This document shows positions 37,233-46,073 of a stretch of DNA of 64,000 nt, in pieces. Under the pieces are notes generated by a model. It ran no database searches. It worked only from the letters and a program-made list of their open reading frames with translations, and was not told the origin of the DNA. The DNA lies in the NCBI GenBank assembly GCA_017642965.1, contig JAEPOJ010000001.1:103576-167575 (forward strand), in the 5' to 3' direction. The stretch is from Phycisphaerales bacterium (lineage in GTDB: Bacteria; Planctomycetota; Phycisphaerae; Phycisphaerales; UBA1924). The position numbers and the translations under genes are program-made. How positions within the stretch are numbered: position 1 is the first letter of the stretch; every line of letters starts with the position of its first letter.

Positions 37233-39131
37233 TTAGCGAGCTTGAAGTGTAACCTCAATGGTGATTTCTTCGCCCTCGCGATTCACGCCAACCTTGACGG
37301 TATCGCCCGGCTCATGCTTCGCGAGCAGCTCGAGCCAAGCCTGGATGTCGGTGAGCTTCTGCCCATCCCAGCGCACGAGCCGGTCACCGGCAAGGATTCC
37401 GGCTTCGGCCGCGGAGCCGCCCTCGGTCACGTCGCCGATCGGGATGCCCGCCTCTTCATCGGTGTAGCTCCCGGGCATGATGCCGAAGCGGACCTTGATG
37501 TCGCTCATTGGGCTCGATGACTGCTGGGAGCTCTGCGCGGCATACTCGAAGCGTGTCGGGTAACTCGCGTACGAGCTGACCATCTCCGCGTAGAGGTGTA
37601 CGGCCTTGGTCGCTCCGACACGGTTGATCTTGTCGCTGGTGTCCTCAGGCGTGTGGTAGTCGGCGTGGAGCCCGTCAATGTGGCTGAACACGACGGGGAT
37701 GTCCGCCCGGTAGAACACGGTGTGGTCGCTCGCGCCGGACATGCGCTCGGGCGCGTTGATCACCAGCCCGGTGTCCTCGAACATCGGCGTGAAGAAGTCA
37801 CGCATACCGACGCCCGTATCCAGACCCGAGACGACGAGCCGCTCTTCCTCGATCCGCCCGATCATGTCCCAGTTAAACATCATGGCGTGGTTCTCGATAT
37901 CGACGATCGGGTCGCTGACATAGTGGCGGGAGCCGTTGAGCCCGCTTTCCTCGCCGTCGAAGAGCATGAGGAGCACGGAGCGGCGGTCGCCATCGGACTC
38001 CTGAGCCATCTCGCTGAGTATGTCGGCCAAGAGCAGGACGCCAGCGGAGCCGGAGGCGTTGTCGTCAGCTCCGGGGTGAAGCTTGCCGGGGCCGGTCCGT
38101 GAACCGAAGTAGCCCATGCCGAGGTGATCGAGATGAGCCCCAACAACGATCCATTCGTCTTGCAGCGCGCCGGACCCATGGATTACGCCGCCGACGTTCG
38201 CGGCCTGGATCGTCTGACGCTCGCTTGCCCCTTCGAGAGAGACACTGCTGCTGGCAGAAACCAGCTCCCCGCCGGTATCGGCGTGCCGACGCAGCCCCAT
38301 CAAGTCCATGCCGCCAAACCCGGCAGCGGTGACAAACTTCTCGCCCGCTTCGGGCGTCATCATGAAGACCGGGAAACCGGCCCCACCACCGCCTGAACCA
38401 AATCGGCTGATCCGATTCGCACGTCGATCGAACGTACCGGGCGGGTTGATGATGATCGCCCCTGCGGCGCCGCGCTCACTGAGGGCGCGCAGCTTGTTGT
38501 TGAATGAGGCACGCCCGGACCACGAACCATCGCCCCAGAGTGCCTCGCCGTCCTCGTCGACCGGTTCGAACCGGAACAGGACCGCGATCTTGCCATCGAG
38601 GTCCTCGACCCCGTTGAAGCTGTCGAAGCCGTCCGGGCCGTTGTCGATGCTGTAGCCAACAAAGACCATCTCGCCCGAGACCGCCCCGTCGCTGCCGAGC
38701 CCGGTGTACACGAAGTCCTCACCGGCCTCGAGCTCGACTCCCTCGAGCGTCAGGGTTTCTTGAGTCGCTTCCCAGGAGCCGCCGAGATCGAACGGGTCGT
38801 AGTAACTTGCGAAGGGTGTGCCGTCCTCGGAGGGGAACGCGGGCTTGATGCCGGCCTGCTCCAGCGTGAAAGCGCAGTATTCACGCGCACGCTCCATGCC
38901 TTCTGAACCGGGCACGCGCCCCATCATGTAGGGGCTGGCGAGCGTCGTGAGGTGCTCGTTGTAGAGCTTGACATCCTCGCTCACGGCCAGGATCGCATCC
39001 GAGATTGGTGCCCCGTCGAGGCCTTGGGTGCTCTTTGTTGCTCCAGTATCCAGCCCGGATGCGATCGCGAGAGTGCCCGCGGTTGCCAGTACTGCTGTGA
39101 TCGCCTTGAGGTGGTCGCATGTCCTCGTCAT
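37233..39131 (-). CDS. Secreted M28-family zinc aminopeptidase with PA and PDZ domains
   Basis: A 632-residue exported peptidase. A signal peptide (about residues 1-25) is followed by a substrate-facing region and a protease-associated domain (about 150-300, with GKIAVLFRFE and GAAGAIIINPP), then the M28 catalytic core. Zinc ligands and base are seen in VVGAHLDHLG (His), HPGADDNASGS (Asp), LFDGEESGLNGSRHY (Glu pair), NWDMIGR (Asp) and HADYHTPED (His). The last 95 residues form a PDZ domain (GIPIGDVTEGGSAAEAGILAG). PA-M28-PDZ proteins trim peptides outside the cytoplasm. Single-gene unit, divergent from the operon at 39287. Confidence 0.95.
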   Translation of the reverse strand: MTRTCDHLKAITAVLATAGTLAIASGLDTGATKSTQGLDGAPISDAILAVSEDVKLYNEHLTTLASPYMMGRVPGSEGMERAREYCAFTLEQAGIKPAFPSEDGTPFASYYDPFDLGGSWEATQETLTLEGVELEAGEDFVYTGLGSDGAVSGEMVFVGYSIDNGPDGFDSFNGVEDLDGKIAVLFRFEPVDEDGEALWGDGSWSGRASFNNKLRALSERGAAGAIIINPPGTFDRRANRISRFGSGGGGAGFPVFMMTPEAGEKFVTAAGFGGMDLMGLRRHADTGGELVSASSSVSLEGASERQTIQAANVGGVIHGSGALQDEWIVVGAHLDHLGMGYFGSRTGPGKLHPGADDNASGSAGVLLLADILSEMAQESDGDRRSVLLMLFDGEESGLNGSRHYVSDPIVDIENHAMMFNWDMIGRIEEERLVVSGLDTGVGMRDFFTPMFEDTGLVINAPERMSGASDHTVFYRADIPVVFSHIDGLHADYHTPEDTSDKINRVGATKAVHLYAEMVSSYASYPTRFEYAAQSSQQSSSPMSDIKVRFGIMPGSYTDEEAGIPIGDVTEGGSAAEAGILAGDRLVRWDGQKLTDIQAWLELLAKHEPGDTVKVGVNREGEEITIEVTLQAR

Positions 39132-39286: not shown

Positions 39287-40633
39287 GTGCGTCCTGCTCA
39301 TGCCCTGGCCATCTTTCTCGCCTGCCTCCTCGGGCGTGCGTCCTACGCGGGGTCGCTGCACCCCCAGGATGGCCCTCACGCGGACCTGCGGGTTGCCATC
39401 GAGGATCGGCAAGTCCGTTTTTCGGTTGGCGTCAATCTCGCGTTTCTGGACGAGACCATCGATGTCCCGCGCGAGGCACTCAATGAGCTCAGCGAGGCCG
39501 AATCGGAACGCGTTCTGGAGGTCTTCCGGGCGTATCTGATCGAGCAGGCAACGTGCATCATCAACGGCGACCGGGTCGAGCCAGCGTTCGAGCGATTGGA
39601 GATGTTCACCCACCCTGATCCGGGCATGATGGCGATCTTTCCGAAGATGGGCGCCCGCGCGTTGATCCGAGCCACCGTCGTGATGCGGTTCGATGCGCCA
39701 TCGGAGATCGAAACGGTGGATCTGACGTGGCCCGCGTACCCATACGACCTGCTCGCGGAGGAGATGGAGCAGGCGAGCGCTGTTCGAGCAAGGATGTACT
39801 TCGAGGCCGTGCTGACCGCCAACGGCAAGACCGAGCCCGCCCGGTTTACCCAAGCCGAACCGACGCTGCGCTGGTCACGATCGGTTACGGAGACCGCCGA
39901 CCCCCTAGAGGACTTGCCGGTCCCGGTGATCGCCGATGTGTCGGAGGACTCGGTGCTCACACGCATCGTGGTGATCGCCCTGGTGCTGACGCTGGCGGGT
40001 GCCGTGATGGCGAAGAGAAGGAACACGACGCTCGCGCGGATGTTTGGAGCCGCGTTCCTGCTCACGGCGGCGGCGATTGTGTATCTGGTTGTTGTCGCGC
40101 CCGGGCTGCGCCCCCCACCACCGCCGCTGCTTTCGGTAACAGACGCGGAACGGGTGCTGCTGGCGCTGCACGAGCGCCTGTACCGGGCGTTCGACTACAC
40201 CGCGGAGTCGGACATTTACGATCATCTTGCGTTCGCGATCGAGGGCGATTTGCTGGGTGAGCTCTATGAGCAGATCCGCCTGTCGTTGCTGCAAGCCGAA
40301 GAGGAGATGAAGATCGGCGTCGTCACCGGGCTCAAGCCGATCGAGACGAGCGTCCTTGAGATCGATGATGCGGGCGAATCCTCGGTCGGGCTGGGCTTTC
40401 GGGCCCGGCACCGCTGGCGCGTCGATGGGACGGTGTACCACTGGGGGCACAGCCACACCCGCGCGCACATTTACGAGGCCGACTACCGTGTTCGCTACAC
40501 GCAGGACGGATGGAAGCTCACGGCGCACGAGCTGCGATCGCAGCAGCGCATCGATCCGGACGACGGATCGCTGTTTAATGAGAGCGAGTCGATCCAGGAT
40601 CAGCTCGAGGATCTCGGGCTGCCGGATATCTAA
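39287..40633 (+). CDS. Hypothetical envelope protein, first gene of the hybrid ABC operon
   Basis: A 448-residue protein starting at a GTG. It has a signal peptide (about residues 1-21), an extracytoplasmic domain of about 200 residues (GVNLAFLDETIDVPREAL; AYPYDLLAEEMEQASA), two close membrane helices (about 224-243 and 250-270) with a short basic loop (KRRNTTLARM), then a C-terminal soluble domain of about 175 residues with HRWRVDGTVYHWGHSHTRAHIY, an unusual His-rich strand. I do not recognise the family. It ends three bases before the ABC ATPase gene, so the four genes to 43411 act together. The His cluster would fit metal binding, in line with the ZnuA-like partner. Confidence 0.8.
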   Translation: MRPAHALAIFLACLLGRASYAGSLHPQDGPHADLRVAIEDRQVRFSVGVNLAFLDETIDVPREALNELSEAESERVLEVFRAYLIEQATCIINGDRVEPAFERLEMFTHPDPGMMAIFPKMGARALIRATVVMRFDAPSEIETVDLTWPAYPYDLLAEEMEQASAVRARMYFEAVLTANGKTEPARFTQAEPTLRWSRSVTETADPLEDLPVPVIADVSEDSVLTRIVVIALVLTLAGAVMAKRRNTTLARMFGAAFLLTAAAIVYLVVVAPGLRPPPPPLLSVTDAERVLLALHERLYRAFDYTAESDIYDHLAFAIEGDLLGELYEQIRLSLLQAEEEMKIGVVTGLKPIETSVLEIDDAGESSVGLGFRARHRWRVDGTVYHWGHSHTRAHIYEADYRVRYTQDGWKLTAHELRSQQRIDPDDGSLFNESESIQDQLEDLGLPDI

Positions 40634-40636
40634 ACG

Positions 40637-41332
40637 ATGGACGTCACCGGCACCAACTCGGTCATCCGTCTCTCGGATGTGGCGTACCGGTTCCCCGGGC
40701 ACGATCGGCTCACGCTGCGCGTGCCGAGCTTCAGCGTTCCGGAGGGCGAGCACACCGCGATCACCGGGCCGAGCGGCTGCGGGAAGACGACGCTGCTGCG
40801 CCTGATCGCGGGCGTGCTGGTCCCGGGCGAGGGATCAGTCCAGACGCTGGGGACAGACACAACCAGGCTGCATCACAAGGCACGCAGCAGGCAGCGCCTT
40901 CGCTCGATCGGGATGGTCTTCCAGGACTTCGCGATCCTGGACTACCTGACCGCGTTTGAGAACATCATGCTGACAGCCAGGATTGGGCGTGCAGACTCCG
41001 GCTCCTCGCGTGAGCATGCGCGAGCGCTGGCGGAACGCGCCGGAATCGGGCACGTGCTGCACCGGCGTCCGGGTCGGCTGAGCCAGGGTGAGCGACAGCG
41101 CGTTGCGGTGTGCAGGGCGCTCGTGACCAAACCCCGGCTTGTCGTCTGTGACGAGCCGACGGGCAACCTCGACCCGTCCCGCTCCAAGGCCATCGTTGAT
41201 CTTGTGCTGGCCGAAGCGGACACGCTGGGTTCCACGGTAATCACGGTCACACACGACCAGACGGTGCTTGACCGGTTCGATCGCACGATCGACCTGAGCG
41301 AGGTCGCGACGCTCAAGGGGGTTGACGCGTGA
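40637..41332 (+). CDS. ABC transporter ATPase, LolD/MacB-like
   Basis: A 231-residue ABC ATPase of the type that works with FtsX-fold permeases. Walker A GPSGCGKTTLLRLIAG, Q-loop VFQDFAILDYLTAFEN (typical of LolD/MacB/FtsE: FQ-x-F-x-L), signature LSQGERQRVAVCRAL, Walker B LVVCDEPTGNLD and VTHDQ (switch His) are intact. The next gene, encoding the permease, starts on its stop codon (GTGA, 41329-41332), so the two are made in step. LolD/MacB ATPases drive mechanotransmission, meaning periplasmic lipid, protein or drug handling, rather than import. Confidence 0.94.
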   Translation: MDVTGTNSVIRLSDVAYRFPGHDRLTLRVPSFSVPEGEHTAITGPSGCGKTTLLRLIAGVLVPGEGSVQTLGTDTTRLHHKARSRQRLRSIGMVFQDFAILDYLTAFENIMLTARIGRADSGSSREHARALAERAGIGHVLHRRPGRLSQGERQRVAVCRALVTKPRLVVCDEPTGNLDPSRSKAIVDLVLAEADTLGSTVITVTHDQTVLDRFDRTIDLSEVATLKGVDA

Positions 41333-42492
41333 TCTTTTTGGCGCTGCGCCATGCTCGGTATCGGTGGGGTCGAACGCTGATGCTCTGCGTGTGCGTGTTT
41401 GTCATCGCCGGGCTGCCGCTTGTGACGCGGAGCGTTGTGCGATCGTTCGAGGATTCACTGCGCGATCGGGCGATCACGGTGCCGATGATTGTCGGGTCCG
41501 CGGGGAGCCGGTTCGATCTGGTGCTCGCCTCTCTGCACTGGCGGGCATCGGATGTGACCCCTATCCCACTGGGCGTTGCGGAGGAGATCCGTTCCGAGCC
41601 CGGCGTGATGGCGATCCCGGTGCACGTGCGTTTCCGGGCGCGGGGGATCCCGATCGCGGCGGTGCCGTACGAGTACTTCGAGTACCGCCTCCTCACTCCG
41701 CGTGACGGACGACTGGTGGCCGGGCTGGGCGAGGCGGTGCTGGGCTCTTCCGCCGCGGCGGAGCTGGGGCTCGTACCCGGGGATGAGCTGCCGAGCGACC
41801 AGCTACGCTCGTACGACATCACCGCTCCGTCCGCGGTCATGCTGCGTGTCGTGGGCGTGCTCCGCGAGACGGGCACCGCGGATGATCGCGCGGTCTTTGT
41901 GGACCTCGAAACCGCGTGGACGCTTGAGGGCATCGCCCACGGGCACGAGGAGGCGTCGTCGATCACCGACGAGAACAAGCTGATCGGTCGTTCGGATGAC
42001 CGCGTGGCGTTGTCAGGGGCCGTCATCGAGCACCAGCGGATCGACGAGTCCACGATCGGCTCCTTTCACCTCCACGCGGACCGGGCGGACCTGCCGGTCA
42101 CCGCGATCCTGGTGTTCCCGGGGTCAGAGAAGACAGCCACGCTCGTGCGCACGCGCATCAATGCCGACCCAACACGTCAGGCGCTGTCGCCCAGCGCGGT
42201 CTCGGAGGAGCTGATCGGGTCGGTCCTGCGTGTGCGCCGTGTGGTCGATGCGATCTCGCTGGTCGTGGGCATCGCGATGCTTGGGCTGCTGGTGCTCGTC
42301 GCCCTGCTGAGCTATCGTGCGCGGGCGGATGAGGTGCGGACGCTGCTGGAGATCGGCGCGACGCCGTCCCAAGTCGCGGCGCTGTTCCTGACCGAGTTCG
42401 GGGGCGTGATCCTGGTCGGGGTCGGCGCGGCTTTTCTGGCGGCGTGGGCATTGGGCGGGGCTTCGGACCGAATACTCACCCTGTTTACCTGA
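41329..42492 (+). CDS. FtsX/MacB-type ABC permease
   Basis: A 387-residue permease starting at GTG with an overlap of four bases on the ATPase stop. An N-terminal helix (about residues 12-33) is followed by a large periplasmic domain (about 34-300, MacB_PCD-like: VPIPLGVAEEIRSEPGVMAIP and SSAAAELGLVPGDELP). The C-terminal FtsX region has helices near 304-326 and 346-375, with RADEVRTLLEIGATPSQVAALFL, the standard cytoplasmic loop. The usual FtsX fold has four helices; only three are evident, and the protein ends ten residues after the last one, so it may be slightly short. Confidence 0.88.
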   Translation: MIFLALRHARYRWGRTLMLCVCVFVIAGLPLVTRSVVRSFEDSLRDRAITVPMIVGSAGSRFDLVLASLHWRASDVTPIPLGVAEEIRSEPGVMAIPVHVRFRARGIPIAAVPYEYFEYRLLTPRDGRLVAGLGEAVLGSSAAAELGLVPGDELPSDQLRSYDITAPSAVMLRVVGVLRETGTADDRAVFVDLETAWTLEGIAHGHEEASSITDENKLIGRSDDRVALSGAVIEHQRIDESTIGSFHLHADRADLPVTAILVFPGSEKTATLVRTRINADPTRQALSPSAVSEELIGSVLRVRRVVDAISLVVGIAMLGLLVLVALLSYRARADEVRTLLEIGATPSQVAALFLTEFGGVILVGVGAAFLAAWALGGASDRILTLFT

Positions 42493-42508
42493 ACAGAAGG
42501 ACGAACGG

Positions 42509-43411
42509 ATGAGACTGCTGAGCTTGTTGGTTATCGCGCTGGTCGGGCTCGCTCTATGTGGGTGCGATCGAACCGATGCATCACCAGACCAACTGCACAT
42601 CGAAGACGTTGTGCGCACCACCTCAGCACCGGTCGATGCGCTGACGCGTCGAATCGCTGGCGATGCGGTGCCGGTCGAACTGCTCTGCCCGCAGTCCGAG
42701 GACCCCGCCGCGTGGCGCCCCGACCCCGAGACGGTTGCGTCGTATCAGCGAGCCAAGCTCATCGTGGCGAACGGCGCAGGGTACGAGGCGTGGGTACAGA
42801 CCGCCCCGCTGCCGCGCTCACGCCTGATCGAAGCGGCCGATGGGCTCTCAGAGCCGCTGATCACGGTCCGGGGCGAGACGCATTCCCACGGCCCCGAGGG
42901 TCATCACACGCATGAGGTGACACTCGGGGAGGTCTGGCTTGATCCGTTGAACGCGATTGCGCAGGCACGGGCGATCACCGCGGGGCTCGCTGACGCGTTC
43001 CCCGAGCATCAGGACAAATTTGGCGCCAATCTTGATGTACTGAGCACCGAGCTGATGGATCTGCATCAGCGGCTCGAACGTCTAGAGCAGGAAGGTGCAG
43101 CGATCGTCGCGCCCAGCACCCCGTTCGGCTATCTCGCCCGGCGGTACGGCTGGCAGACGCTCGATCTCTCACAGGCCCCAGAGGATTGGCCGATGGATCT
43201 GTACTCGCACGGGATGGAGTCAGGGGATTTCGGATCAGGGCCCCGGGCGCTCTTGTGTGACAAGCCCCCCGACCCGGCGGTCGCGAACACCCTGCTCGAA
43301 TCGCACGACGTGCATCTCGTACTCTGGCGGACCGGTTCCCGCGACCGTGGCAAGTCATTCACTGAGATGCTCTCAGGGAACATCGATCGACTCGAAGCCT
43401 CGATTCCCTGA
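42509..43411 (+). CDS. ZnuA-like metal-binding lipoprotein
   Basis: A 300-residue lipoprotein (lipobox LCGC, Cys19) of the cluster 9 / TroA family that binds Zn or Mn for ABC import. Family marks are VVRTTSAPVDALTRRIAGD, DPAAWRPDPETVASYQRAKLIVANGAGYEAWV, VWLDPLNAIAQARAIT and VAPSTPFGYLARRYGW. A His-rich loop (HSHGPEGHHTHE, about residues 133-144) is typical of zinc-specific members. It follows the permease gene by 16 bases. Its partners in ZnuABC would be a ZnuB/C pair, but here it is encoded with an FtsX-type permease. The family His in PHPHFWLDP-like positions are partly altered (VWLDP). Confidence 0.88.
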   Translation: MRLLSLLVIALVGLALCGCDRTDASPDQLHIEDVVRTTSAPVDALTRRIAGDAVPVELLCPQSEDPAAWRPDPETVASYQRAKLIVANGAGYEAWVQTAPLPRSRLIEAADGLSEPLITVRGETHSHGPEGHHTHEVTLGEVWLDPLNAIAQARAITAGLADAFPEHQDKFGANLDVLSTELMDLHQRLERLEQEGAAIVAPSTPFGYLARRYGWQTLDLSQAPEDWPMDLYSHGMESGDFGSGPRALLCDKPPDPAVANTLLESHDVHLVLWRTGSRDRGKSFTEMLSGNIDRLEASIP

Positions 43412-43927
43412 CGAGCCGGAGTCAGAGGCGGATGCTCGAGTCTGAGGCAGATCGAGTTTTCATCCGCACCTCGTGCTTCTCTGCCGTCTTTGAGCCAGAG
43501 GCACGAGATTCAATGACACCGCGGGCAACCTCACCTGCAGGATGCCGGGGCCACAACATTTATATATCAATATACACGAAACCGACACAACTATGAGTCG
43601 TCGGCCGCCGCGACGCACGCGCCTCCCGATGGTCCTACAGGCGCCGAAGTCCGCCCTGTCCGAATATTTACGGTCATTCTGGTGTCTTGCACGAGCACAC
43701 GCCTCGACGGGCGCCGACACCTCGGATTGCTATGCAATTAATATTAGCAATAATTCTATGTACGCGCAGATTATATTAATACGCCGCAATGCCCCTTGAT
43801 ATTGGATGTCGTGCGTGTATCTTTGGGAAGACCATCGATGCGTATGTTGAACTTGGCGTTCAGGAAACGCCCCGGCTCTCGGGGGGTTGCGCTATCGGCA
43901 TGCCATCGAGACACCTGGAGATACGAA
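43412..43927. other. 516-base gene-free region upstream of the lamin-tail protein
   Basis: This stretch is unusual for its AT-rich islands: 43558-43575 (TTTATATATCAATATACAC) and 43735-43792, which carries AATTAATATTAGCAATAATT and ATTATATTAATACG. No terminator with a T run follows the operon ending at 43411, and no clear sigma70 promoter is seen for 43928, though TATGTTG at 43842-43848 resembles a -10. One short frame (about 43574-43799) has no ribosome site or homology features, so I leave it out. It may mark an old junction. Confidence 0.55.
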
Positions 43928-45028
43928 ATGAACCTGCGAATCACACTGTCATGCTTGACGCTCGCCGCCATCGCCGGATCCGCTGCCGCGGGCCCCATTT
44001 ACATCAACGAGATCGTCAGTGACCCGGACGGGGGCGACGGCGCATGGGAGTACATCGAGCTCTTCGGCTGCCCCGGCGAGTCCCTCACGGGCTACGTTGT
44101 GATCGTCATGAACGATAACGGCTCAACAGCTGAGATCGACGAGGCGTTCCACTTCCCAACCACGGGCTCCCTGTACAGCCTCGATGAGGACGGGTACTTC
44201 GTCATCTGGAACACCGAGTACGACGAGGAGAGCGAAGGGGATGCCGGCTCACCCTCAGACCACGCGCTCGAGTCCGACATCTACAGCGTCCTGCCAGACA
44301 CCATCACCAACAACGACGCCGACATCGACAACTCGACCGACCGCCATGAAGCCAGCTTTGTCGAGCTCCGCACCGCGGGCGACTACGCCGGCAAAATCGC
44401 GAACGACGGCTCCATCACCATCATCCTCGCCAATAACGTCTCCAACTACGGCATCATCGAGAAGGACGACAGCATCCCCACCACCTACCCGTTCACCATG
44501 GTCGACGAGGTCGCCTGGTCCGACGGCGGGTCCGAGTACACTGTCGAGGAAGCCAACGAGTTCGACTACACCCCCGGCTTCAACCCCGACATGCTCGTCC
44601 GCTGCGGCAACACCAGCGCCAACATCGTTGACACCACCCTCGATCTCGACCCCACCAGCGGCACCGAGCCCTACCGCGATGCATACATCGAGTGGTTCGG
44701 CGCTGAGGTTGACTCCAACCCGACCGCCAACAACGAGGGCGACGTGTTCTACTCCAAGAACAGTGAGGACTCGTACGGCGCCGGCGCCTACACCGCGGGC
44801 CCACCCAGCTCCTTCACACCGATGGAAGACGTGGATGATGTCACCGCGACGCCCGGGTTCGCCAACCACTACTTCGACAGCGACTCCAAGCAGATCTCCG
44901 TCTCTTGCCGCCTCGCGGGCGACATGAACCAGGACGGCAGCGTCAACTTCGCCGACATCGAGCACGTGCTCAACAACGGCGGCAGCTACGCCGATCTCCT
45001 CAAGGTCATGGACTCGATGGGCCGCTGA
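43928..45028 (+). CDS. Secreted lamin-tail-like protein with dockerin-like C-terminus
   Basis: A 366-residue exported protein. A signal peptide of 21 or so residues (ends GSAAAG) is followed by an LTD-like (lamin tail) beta-sandwich opening YINEIVSDPDGGDGAWEYIELFG. An acidic, Asn/Thr-rich middle follows. The C-terminus has DMNQDGSVNFADIEHVLNNGG, a single EF-hand-like dockerin repeat, but lacks the GCP ending of its neighbours. The leader GGAGATACGAAATGAA (43917-43932) is identical to that before 6641. Paralogues of the LTD part are encoded at 46074-47810 and 49010-50401. It lies apart from both on the same strand as the latter. Confidence 0.85.
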   Translation: MNLRITLSCLTLAAIAGSAAAGPIYINEIVSDPDGGDGAWEYIELFGCPGESLTGYVVIVMNDNGSTAEIDEAFHFPTTGSLYSLDEDGYFVIWNTEYDEESEGDAGSPSDHALESDIYSVLPDTITNNDADIDNSTDRHEASFVELRTAGDYAGKIANDGSITIILANNVSNYGIIEKDDSIPTTYPFTMVDEVAWSDGGSEYTVEEANEFDYTPGFNPDMLVRCGNTSANIVDTTLDLDPTSGTEPYRDAYIEWFGAEVDSNPTANNEGDVFYSKNSEDSYGAGAYTAGPPSSFTPMEDVDDVTATPGFANHYFDSDSKQISVSCRLAGDMNQDGSVNFADIEHVLNNGGSYADLLKVMDSMGR

Positions 45029-45080
45029 TCCCCCCACGATGATCCATGTCCACGAGCGCCCCCAGCGCTCTACTCAGCAG

Positions 45081-45111
45081 GACGTCCGGGCCACAACCCG
45101 GGCGTCTTTTT
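45081..45111 (+). terminator. Rho-independent terminator after the lamin-tail protein
   Basis: Stem GACGTCCGGG / CCCGGGCGTC (one G-U pair) with a six-base loop and five T (45107-45111). Confidence 0.8.
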
Positions 45112-45130
45112 CGCGACCAGCGCCGCAGTC

Positions 45131-45167
45131 ACACAAAGAAGCACGCCCGGGCCATACCCGGGCGTGC
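45131..45167 (-). terminator. Terminator of the PEP-CTERM-like gene
   Basis: Perfect 11-bp stem GCACGCCCGGG / CCCGGGCGTGC (45141-45151 with 45157-45167). On the minus strand it is followed by TTCTTTGTGT, a modest T-rich tail, 30 bases past the stop at 45197. Left arm and GC core resemble the plus-strand terminator at 45081, so the pair may share an origin. Confidence 0.75.
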
Positions 45168-45196
45168 GACGCGTGGTGCGGTTGTGACAGAGCCGA

Positions 45197-45940
45197 TCAG
45201 CGCCGACGACGGGCCGAGAACAACCCGCCAAGCCCCAGCAGCGCCATGGCGCCAGGGGCTGGCACCGTGGTGATCGAGAGCGAGGTGCTGAGGAACTCAT
45301 CGACTGAGGTGAACGCGGGATCACCCTCACGCACGTAGTGCTCGAAGATGAACTGGACCTCGATCACATCGCCCGCGAGCAGCGGCGTGTCGAAGCTGAA
45401 TGGCGAGTCGACCTGGGTGCCGGTGTTGAAGCCCGCCGAGAAATCCGCGAATGAGCCGAGCTGGGAGCTGACATTGAAGGTGACCTCCAGCGCGGTGCGG
45501 TCGTTCGTCGCCGCTCCGAACATCCCATCGAACGCGATGGTGGCCATGGTCGCCTCGGTGACCTGGATCTGCACATCGAGCCCGATGGTGTTGCGGGTCC
45601 GTGCGCGGTTTCCGCCGATCATAGCGGACTCGAGCAGCGAGCCCTGGATCGCTGAATCGGCGCTGATCACGACCGAGTTGGCGCCTGAGCTCACGCCCCC
45701 CGAGAACTGGTTGTGCCAGCCACTGATTGTCGGGTGTACGCTGCTGTCGAGGTCGTAGCCGAGGTCGAAGCTGCTGCTGCCCGTCATCACGTCTTCGATG
45801 CTCTGGCTGACCTGCGGATCAGCGGAGCGGAAGATGTACAGCGACGTCGCCTGTCCGTCGCCCGTGGTCATGAGGTCCGCCTGCGCCCCGCCCGCGAACG
45901 CGAGGACCGCGCCCATACCGATAGTTGCCTTGATGCTCAT
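45197..45940 (-). CDS. Exported protein with PEP-CTERM-like sorting tail
   Basis: A 247-residue secreted protein. A signal peptide (MSIKATIGMGAVLAFAGGAQA) is followed by a beta-rich body with SGANSVVISADSAIQG and two long acidic strands near residues 160-215. The tail VPAPGAMALLGLGGLFSARRRR is a clear exosortase-type signal (P-A-P-G, hydrophobic stretch, four Arg). The frame is open to 46018, but the ATG at 45940 has GGAGA six bases upstream, the leader pattern shared by other exported genes here. The body is not related to that of the 5794/6641 pair and matches no family I recognise. Confidence 0.87.
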   Translation of the reverse strand: MSIKATIGMGAVLAFAGGAQADLMTTGDGQATSLYIFRSADPQVSQSIEDVMTGSSSFDLGYDLDSSVHPTISGWHNQFSGGVSSGANSVVISADSAIQGSLLESAMIGGNRARTRNTIGLDVQIQVTEATMATIAFDGMFGAATNDRTALEVTFNVSSQLGSFADFSAGFNTGTQVDSPFSFDTPLLAGDVIEVQFIFEHYVREGDPAFTSVDEFLSTSLSITTVPAPGAMALLGLGGLFSARRRR

Positions 45941-46073
45941 GTGCTCTCTCCTCTTGGAAACTCTCTCAGAAAGAATGGTGCGCAAGCGTGCCGACAACGT
46001 GTCATGCCCGCGGCGCAACGGTTTGGAATGGGCGGGCGTCCCCTCTCAGCGACACCCGCCCGTGCGTAGCCGG

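What the first reader, a model, noticed from the sequence alone, without database searches (positions are those of the whole stretch)
39287..43411. Hybrid ABC operon: ZnuA-like binding protein with LolD/MacB ATPase and FtsX permease
Four genes in a row, spaced by 3, -4 and 16 bases, encode an unrecognised envelope protein with a His-rich strand, a LolD/MacB-type ATPase, an FtsX-type permease and a ZnuA-like lipoprotein with a His-rich loop. Zn-binding proteins of this class normally serve ZnuB-type importers; FtsX permeases act by mechanotransmission. A metal-responsive envelope machine or a new kind of importer is possible. The permease seems one helix short, and the first gene has no known family in my reading.
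Basis: partly seen in the sequence, partly recalled or inferred. Interest (0 to 1): 0.7.

Follow-up and report, generated by a model that had tools for sequence, protein, structure and literature searches.

The report
Three-helix MacB-type envelope metal machine
Four genes that often stay together in planctomycete bacteria encode an ABC-type machine of the cell envelope that is predicted to use ATP to pass metal ions, likely zinc or nickel, between histidine-rich proteins; by sequence and predicted structure its membrane protein lacks a helix that related machines have, which makes it a new variant worth testing.

Summary
In detail: four genes (39287-43411, gaps 3, -4, 16 bases) encode a protein of no Pfam family, a LolD/FtsE-type ATPase, a MacB/LolE-fold permease and a ZnuA-like lipoprotein. 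It is no chance neighbourhood. The same order occurs in 22 of 57 Phycisphaerales loci and 21 of 32 loci elsewhere in the phylum; gene 1 or gene 4 lies near the permease gene in 55 of 57. Two proteobacterial plasmids carry the module, one near NikR, the other beside two DUF4198 genes.

New: (1) the N-domain of gene 1 is predicted to fold like ZrgA/PA4063 and the 'anglerase' Ang-1 domain, so gene 1, not gene 4, looks like the receptor of Zrg systems. (2) The permease has three membrane helices in 57 of 57 complete members, and four invariant periplasmic histidines (59 of 59). (3) Gene 4 lost the first zinc ligand of ZnuA (75 of 76), while a HSHGxxGxHSH-type loop is nearly invariant (74 of 76); the window copy lacks all three ligand histidines. 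ZnuB-type permeases exist separately in 56 of 57 genomes.

Best reading: a Zrg-like, MacB-type metal-acquisition machine with displaced metal sites. Metal, direction and mechanism are inferred. New variant of a known kind.

The parts
39287..40633 (+). Gene 1 (448 aa): signal peptide, ZrgA/Ang-1-like periplasmic domain (about res 27-196), two TM helices (221-242, 247-274), periplasmic ARC6-IMS/NTF2/VirB8-like domain (277-425)
   Evidence: ORF; no Pfam/NCBIfam family; AlphaFold pLDDT 84.0; fold matches; matched in 30 of 30 genomes tested, one of them (G025) only in part
39359..39379 (+). HPQDGPH near the start of the mature protein of gene 1 (H25, H31)
   Evidence: His in 60 and 61 of 66 homologues
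40436..40456 (+). YHWGHSH hairpin of gene 1 (H385, H388, H390)
   Evidence: the three His are invariant in 66 of 66, as is H295
40637..41332 (+). Gene 2 (231 aa): FtsE/LolD/DevA-type ABC ATPase
   Evidence: PF00005 117 bits; NCBIfam FtsE 180, LolD 168 bits, under cut-off
41329..42492 (+). Gene 3 (387 aa): MacB/LolE-fold permease with three TM helices (13-48, 288-331, 346-386), no TM4
   Evidence: MacB_PCD above cut-off; AlphaFold pLDDT 87.6, pTM 0.74; fold search; C-terminus counts
41938..41946 (+). Periplasmic HGH (H204, H206) of gene 3
   Evidence: His in 59 of 59 family members, each in 1 of 12 outgroup permeases
42067..42075 (+). Periplasmic HLH (H247, H249) of gene 3
   Evidence: His in 59 of 59; also in 9 and 11 of 12 outgroup permeases, so older
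42509..43411 (+). Gene 4 (300 aa): ZnuA-like lipoprotein, lipobox Cys at residue 19
   Evidence: PF01297 121.7 bits; Cys19 invariant in 26 of 26 aligned; the two plasmid copies show no such Cys (by eye)
42881..42913 (+). HSHGPEGHHTH loop of gene 4
   Evidence: pattern in 48 of 48 and 26 of 28 homologues; the three canonical ligand positions are A, E, S in the window copy
37233..39131 (-). Divergent neighbour: secreted-type M28 metallopeptidase with PDZ domain; conserved beside the operon, role in it untested
   Evidence: Pfam; upstream on the opposite strand in 24 of 57 loci, 19 of 23 of the window's family

Best explanation
The four genes encode a predicted MacB-fold, three-helix ABC machine of the cell envelope that likely serves metal acquisition: ATP hydrolysis by gene 2 would move the periplasmic part of gene 3 and so pass a transition metal (probably zinc or nickel) between a membrane-tethered ZrgA/anglerase-like receptor (gene 1) and a ZnuA-like lipoprotein (gene 4). 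Shown here: gene content and order, the invariant histidines, the loss of the canonical ZnuA ligands, the short permease C-terminus, and the separate ZnuB-type genes. Predicted: the folds and the missing TM4. Inferred: metal binding at these histidines, complex formation, the metal, the direction. Whether the metal crosses the membrane through gene 3 or is handed on to a separate importer is not shown; with three helices per permease and the mechanotransmission known for MacB/LolCDE, a hand-over on the periplasmic side is the more economical reading.
Against: No sequence link of gene 1 to ZrgA: no PF10986 hit, no ZrgA chain found by the gene 1 profile up to E 10. Ang-1 was slightly destabilised by zinc in the paper's assay, so the fold match does not argue for zinc. 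The similar P. aeruginosa pair is argued to be an exporter (PMC11481552, passages). The Paracoccus module follows type II secretion genes. No Zur or NikR gene or site was recognised at the window operon, but none was searched for systematically. Gene 4 of the window lacks all three classical ligand histidines. Six of 57 genomes have no gene 4-type protein. No metal, complex or phenotype was measured.
Confidence: 0.45

Rival explanations
1. It is a metal or metal-complex exporter, as argued for PA4063-PA4066: the MacB-type pair pushes out a metallophore-metal complex and genes 1 and 4 capture or sense periplasmic metal.
For: MacB superfamily members with known roles are mostly exporters or extractors (general knowledge); in P. 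aeruginosa loss of PA4065 raised cell cobalt, and in a zinc-uptake mutant also cell pyochelin (PMC11481552, passages). The Paracoccus copy follows type II secretion genes.
Against: No outer-membrane factor or MacA-type adaptor among the 25 most frequent families of 71 neighbour ORFs (85 further families not shown). Binding-protein-type partners and, on one plasmid, an annotated TonB receptor and NikR point to uptake.
Confidence: 0.2
2. It is a periplasmic metallation relay: ATP-driven motion of gene 3 moves metal from gene 1 to gene 4 and on to exported metalloenzymes such as the divergent M28 peptidase; nothing crosses the inner membrane.
For: Three-helix permease, the conserved His on the periplasmic side of the predicted topology, M28 peptidase divergent in 24 of 57 loci.
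Against: The peptidase was not found in the fetched stretch of the other 33 loci; no direct evidence of hand-over.
Confidence: 0.15
3. Gene 4 works in trans as the binding protein of a separate ZnuB/ZnuC importer, and its place in the operon is only co-regulation.
For: The window genome has one PF01297 gene, gene 4, and a ZnuC/ZnuB pair without a binding-protein gene; a close relative has a similar orphan pair.
Against: The window copy lacks all three ligand His; other carriers looked at have a full ZnuA beside ZnuB; gene 4 lies near genes 2-3 in 42 of 57 loci. The assembly is about 92% complete, so a ZnuA may be missing.
Confidence: 0.1
4. It is a LolCDE-, FtsEX- or BceAB-like machine for a non-metal substrate or signal, with incidental histidines.
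For: Closest folds are LolE and MacB, then HrtB, YbbAP, BceB and FtsX; ATPase nearest FtsE/LolD.
Against: Invariant His clusters in three of four proteins and PF01297/ZrgA-like partners.
Confidence: 0.1

Closest known systems
ZrgABC(DE) of Vibrio / PA4063-PA4066 of Pseudomonas (PF10986 ZrgA with MacB-like ATPase and permease)
   Same: Separate ATPase and MacB-like permease encoded with a periplasmic metal receptor of the same predicted fold (papers; fold).
   Different: Gene 1 has no PF10986 match, is membrane-tethered and carries an ARC6-IMS/NTF2-like domain; the permease has three helices, not the four predicted for ZrgB; a ZnuA-like lipoprotein is added. ZrgB/ZrgC sequences were not compared directly.
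ZnuABC / cluster A-I metal importers
   Same: Gene 4 is PF01297.
   Different: Partner permease is MacB-type, not PF00950; first ligand His lost in 75 of 76, loop nearly invariant.
MacB / LolCDE / type VII ABC superfamily
   Same: ATPase type, MacB_PCD domain and overall fold.
   Different: TM4 absent in all complete members read; extra periplasmic HGH pair.
Anglerase (Ang-1) HupE/UreJ-2 proteins
   Same: Predicted fold of the receptor domain and a conserved His close to the mature N-terminus.
   Different: Followed by two TM helices and an NTF2-like domain, not by a HupE/UreJ-2 permease; the His is often a few residues from the likely cleavage site (by eye).

Membership tests
Zrg system (ZrgA, PF10986) | Receptor matches PF10986 | tested here: not met
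   No PF10986 hit for gene 1 at E<=1; the PF10986 search of G000 hit only another contig, under cut-off
Zrg system (ZrgA, PF10986) | Receptor has the ZrgA ferredoxin-like fold | tested here: met
Zrg system (ZrgA, PF10986) | Zur regulation / zinc-limited growth | not testable with these tools
   No expression data; 14 upstream regions were printed and read by eye only
MacB / type VII ABC superfamily | MacB_PCD periplasmic domain | tested here: met
   33.9 bits, cut-off 27; fold
MacB / type VII ABC superfamily | Four TM helices (full FtsX domain) | tested here: not met
   Three helices; FtsX 20 bits, cut-off 25.5, positions 3-73 of 120
MacB / type VII ABC superfamily | LolD/MacB-type ATPase | tested here: met
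   Best models FtsE, LolD, DevA, each under its cut-off
ZnuA-type zinc-binding protein | PF01297 family | tested here: met
   121.7 bits; nearest solved relatives by profile YcdH, AdcA
ZnuA-type zinc-binding protein | Three ligand histidines in the cleft | tested here: not met
   A, E, S in the window; His at site 1 in 1 of 76 (L038, likely a misalignment), site 2 in 43 of 76, site 3 in 61 of 76; canonical set 10, 12, 12 of 12
ZnuABC importer | ABC-3 (PF00950) permease as partner | tested here: not met
   Partner is gene 3; PF00950 genes lie elsewhere in 56 of 57 genomes
Anglerase (Ang-1) | Fold and N-terminal His | tested here: inconclusive
   Fold match; H25 in 60 of 66, but no cleavage-site prediction was run

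The most novel reading that the evidence does not exclude
A three-helix descendant of the MacB family that has given up the route across the membrane and works as an ATP-driven metal relay on the outer face of the inner membrane: it moves metal between a tethered ZrgA/anglerase-type receptor and a ZnuA-like lipoprotein whose metal site has migrated from the cleft to a near-invariant HSHGxxGxHSH loop, to load exported enzymes or feed other importers. A phylum-wide mechanotransmission metal machine would be a new functional class.
Probability: 0.18. Interest if true: 0.88.

Novelty: new variant of a known kind. Interest (0 to 1): 0.7.

Why it matters
Whether MacB-type metal systems import or export is disputed (Vibrio Zrg against Pseudomonas PA4063-4066). 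This family isolates the question: its permease lacks a helix, its two metal-binding partners have unrelated folds and either can be the only one next to the pump, and its ZnuA-like partner has abandoned the classical zinc site. That makes 'can a mechanotransmission ABC machine move a metal ion, and where to' directly testable. It also gives a first functional reading to a conserved, unnamed membrane protein of planctomycetes.

Tried and rejected
Regulation: the sigma-70/terminator scan gave no promoter-like site before gene 1 and no terminator-like site just after gene 4. Fourteen upstream regions of f2 loci were printed and read by eye; no Zur-like palindrome was obvious; patterns were written into the script but no motif search was run. 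A regulator among neighbours: none among the 25 families shown of 110 that match 71 neighbour ORFs; I chose the 71 from 143 listed by a GC3 heuristic; most frequent was Amidohydro_1, 5 of 71.

Not in print, as far as searched: seven literature searches, seen as listings with starts of abstracts and some of them capped, show no paper on a FtsX/MacB-type permease with a ZnuA-like protein; the library holds open-licence papers only.

Limits: A5, the gene 4 profile, misses some canonical ZnuA (G230: one match, two), so absence of PF01297 was judged only for the 14 genomes. G097 has two short contig fragments that may be a further member; not counted. The domains of gene 1 were not folded or searched alone. 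One search stopped half-way on a script error; its second half was rerun.

Full report
What is there. Four + strand genes at 39287-40633, 40637-41332, 41329-42492 and 42509-43411 are spaced by 3, -4 and 16 bases. Gene 2 is an ABC ATPase nearest FtsE, LolD and DevA, each below its cut-off. Gene 3 passes Pfam MacB_PCD and matches only the first part of FtsX, below cut-off. Gene 4 is PF01297 ZnuA. Gene 1 matches no Pfam or NCBIfam family above cut-off. The window lies in an unnamed assembly (G000, about 92% complete); named relatives of genes 1 and 3 are mostly Phycisphaerales and Planctomycetota.

Conservation in the order. A profile of gene 3 (A3) found 159 of 251 genomes at E <= 1e-10; full-length scores fall into a family at E <= 5e-61 (56 genomes) and other permeases from 7e-41 on. 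With G025, found earlier, 57 loci were read. Gene order: 1-2-3-4 in 22 (G063 is listed as 2-1-3-4 because of an over-long ORF; its coordinates give 1-2-3-4), 4-1-2-3 in 2, gene 4 divergent from 2-3 in 14, 2-3-4 in 4, 1-2-3 in 13, 2-3 in 1, 3 alone in 1; at least G025, G248 and G225 are cut by contig ends. So gene 4 is near in 42 of 57, gene 1 in 37 of 57, one or other in 55 of 57 (within about 3.6 kb, centre to centre). In the window's family (f1) 20 of 23 have 1-2-3-4. Gene 1 is matched in 30 of 30 genomes searched (30 of the 57 given), on a contig other than that of gene 3 in 19 f2 genomes, and only in part, on another contig, in G025. A gene 4-type protein (E <= 6e-54, or adjacent in G036) is somewhere in 51 of 57 genomes; six f6 genomes have none. 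In G048 genes 2 and 3 are fused as in MacB.

Conservation in the phylum. Gene 3 at E <= 1e-45 is in 61 of 246 genomes drawn, 55 of them outside the order; 32 loci from 31 of these 55 were fetched. Of the 32, 21 have 1-2-3-4, 4 have 1-2-3, 4 have 2-3-4, 1 has 3-4, 2 have 2-3.

Outside the phylum. tblastn of gene 3 against plasmids gave two strong hits (38.7% and 36.6% identity); 44 records match in all, 25 were listed. Paracoccus liaowanqingii: type II secretion genes, DUF4198, a 166 aa protein, ATPase, permease, ZnuA-like, DUF4198. Methylomagnum ishizawai: CopC, two further proteins, a 498 aa protein, ATPase, permease, ZnuA-like, a small protein, TonB receptor, NikR (names as annotated; DUF4198 and NikR confirmed by Pfam and NCBIfam). 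Profiles confirm all four parts; gene 1 is matched mainly over its C-domain (112 and 68 bits) and exists as that domain alone in Paracoccus. The receptor domain thus looks exchangeable: in Paracoccus a DUF4198 gene stands in its place; a DUF4198 protein is reported to bind nickel best (PMC12537917, passages). The plasmid gene 4 copies show no lipobox Cys (by eye). Two weaker hits, from Thermus thermophilus and Paracoccus pantotrophus, have permeases with the longer C-terminus, and none of the three CDS tested at each matched gene 1 or gene 4.

Gene 4. Site 1 of the classical zinc site is His in 1 of 48 and 0 of 28 homologues, site 2 in 25 and 18, site 3 in 39 and 22; among 12 canonical ZnuA of the same order 10, 12 and 12. 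The window copy has A, E and S. An HxHGx(1-6)HxH loop is found in 48 of 48 and a slightly looser pattern in 26 of 28, against 1 of 12 canonical ones. One of the 48 (L036) is not beside a permease gene; all were picked by a profile made from linked members, so they are not a random draw of PF01297. The PDB profile alignment with YcdH and AdcA supports the register of site 1.

Not the ZnuB system. PF00950 permeases occur in 56 of 57 genomes, the miss being the 78% complete G153; in the carriers looked at a canonical ZnuA lies beside them. In the window's genome the only PF01297 protein is gene 4, and a ZnuC/ZnuB pair about 6 kb before the window has no binding-protein gene. This keeps the in-trans rival alive, though the assembly is incomplete.

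Neighbours. An M28 metallopeptidase with a PDZ domain (37233-39131, -) lies upstream on the opposite strand in 24 of 57 loci, 19 of 23 in the window's family; in the wider set 10 of 32 loci have a relative nearby, 7 on the opposite strand.

Comparison with the known. Papers were read as passages: ZrgA is required for zinc import through zrgABCDE in V. cholerae, and ZrgB is predicted to have four TM helices and a MacB-like domain (PMC9820375); the zrg operon of V. parahaemolyticus is Zur-regulated (PMC9817125); PA4064/PA4065 are argued to be a MacB-type exporter of pyochelin-cobalt, though loss of PA4065 also harms growth of a zinc-uptake mutant in low zinc (PMC11481552). The window system resembles these in architecture but fails two tests (PF10986; four helices), so it is filed as a new variant and not as a member. 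ZrgB/ZrgC sequences were not at hand for a direct comparison.

Mechanism. Shown: components, conservation. Predicted: folds and helices. Inferred: metal binding, complex, ATP-driven transfer, uptake direction. Uptake is preferred because receptor-type partners dominate and because the Methylomagnum copy lies near NikR and an annotated TonB receptor. That copy, the DUF4198 neighbours and the Ang-1 match also mean that the metal may be nickel, cobalt or copper and not zinc.

Noticed in passing
G000:C11, locus L161:7847-9633 (-), about 6 kb before the window: A ZnuC/ZnuB pair with a His-rich loop in ZnuB and no binding-protein gene, beside a large heavy-metal P-type ATPase (by eye, CcoI/FixI-like); a similar orphan pair lies in relative G019 (L164).
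   Followed up: partly
L034:5261-6755 (G051): Gene 1 is split into two overlapping ORFs at the border between its receptor domain and its TM/NTF2 part: a natural split or a frameshift.
   Followed up: no
L033:7181-9115 (G048); also database protein P0028: ATPase and permease fused into one protein (644 and 618 aa), as in MacB.
   Followed up: partly
window 43796-46018: Two secreted-type ORFs beside the operon; the one at 45197-46018 (-) ends in a C-terminal GLGGLFSARRRR sorting-like tail, and relatives of the one at 43796-45028 appear to recur in the window and in other loci (by eye).
   Followed up: no
L144-L153: A second group of FtsX-type permeases of the order (E about 1e-41 to 1e-26 to the family profile) that mostly keep the HxH pair H247/H249 but have the longer C-terminus; their role was not studied.
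   Followed up: partly
G058, G091, G149, G216, G239, G161, G180, G225, G248: Genomes in which the gene 4-type protein is encoded on a contig other than that of the pump genes.
   Followed up: partly
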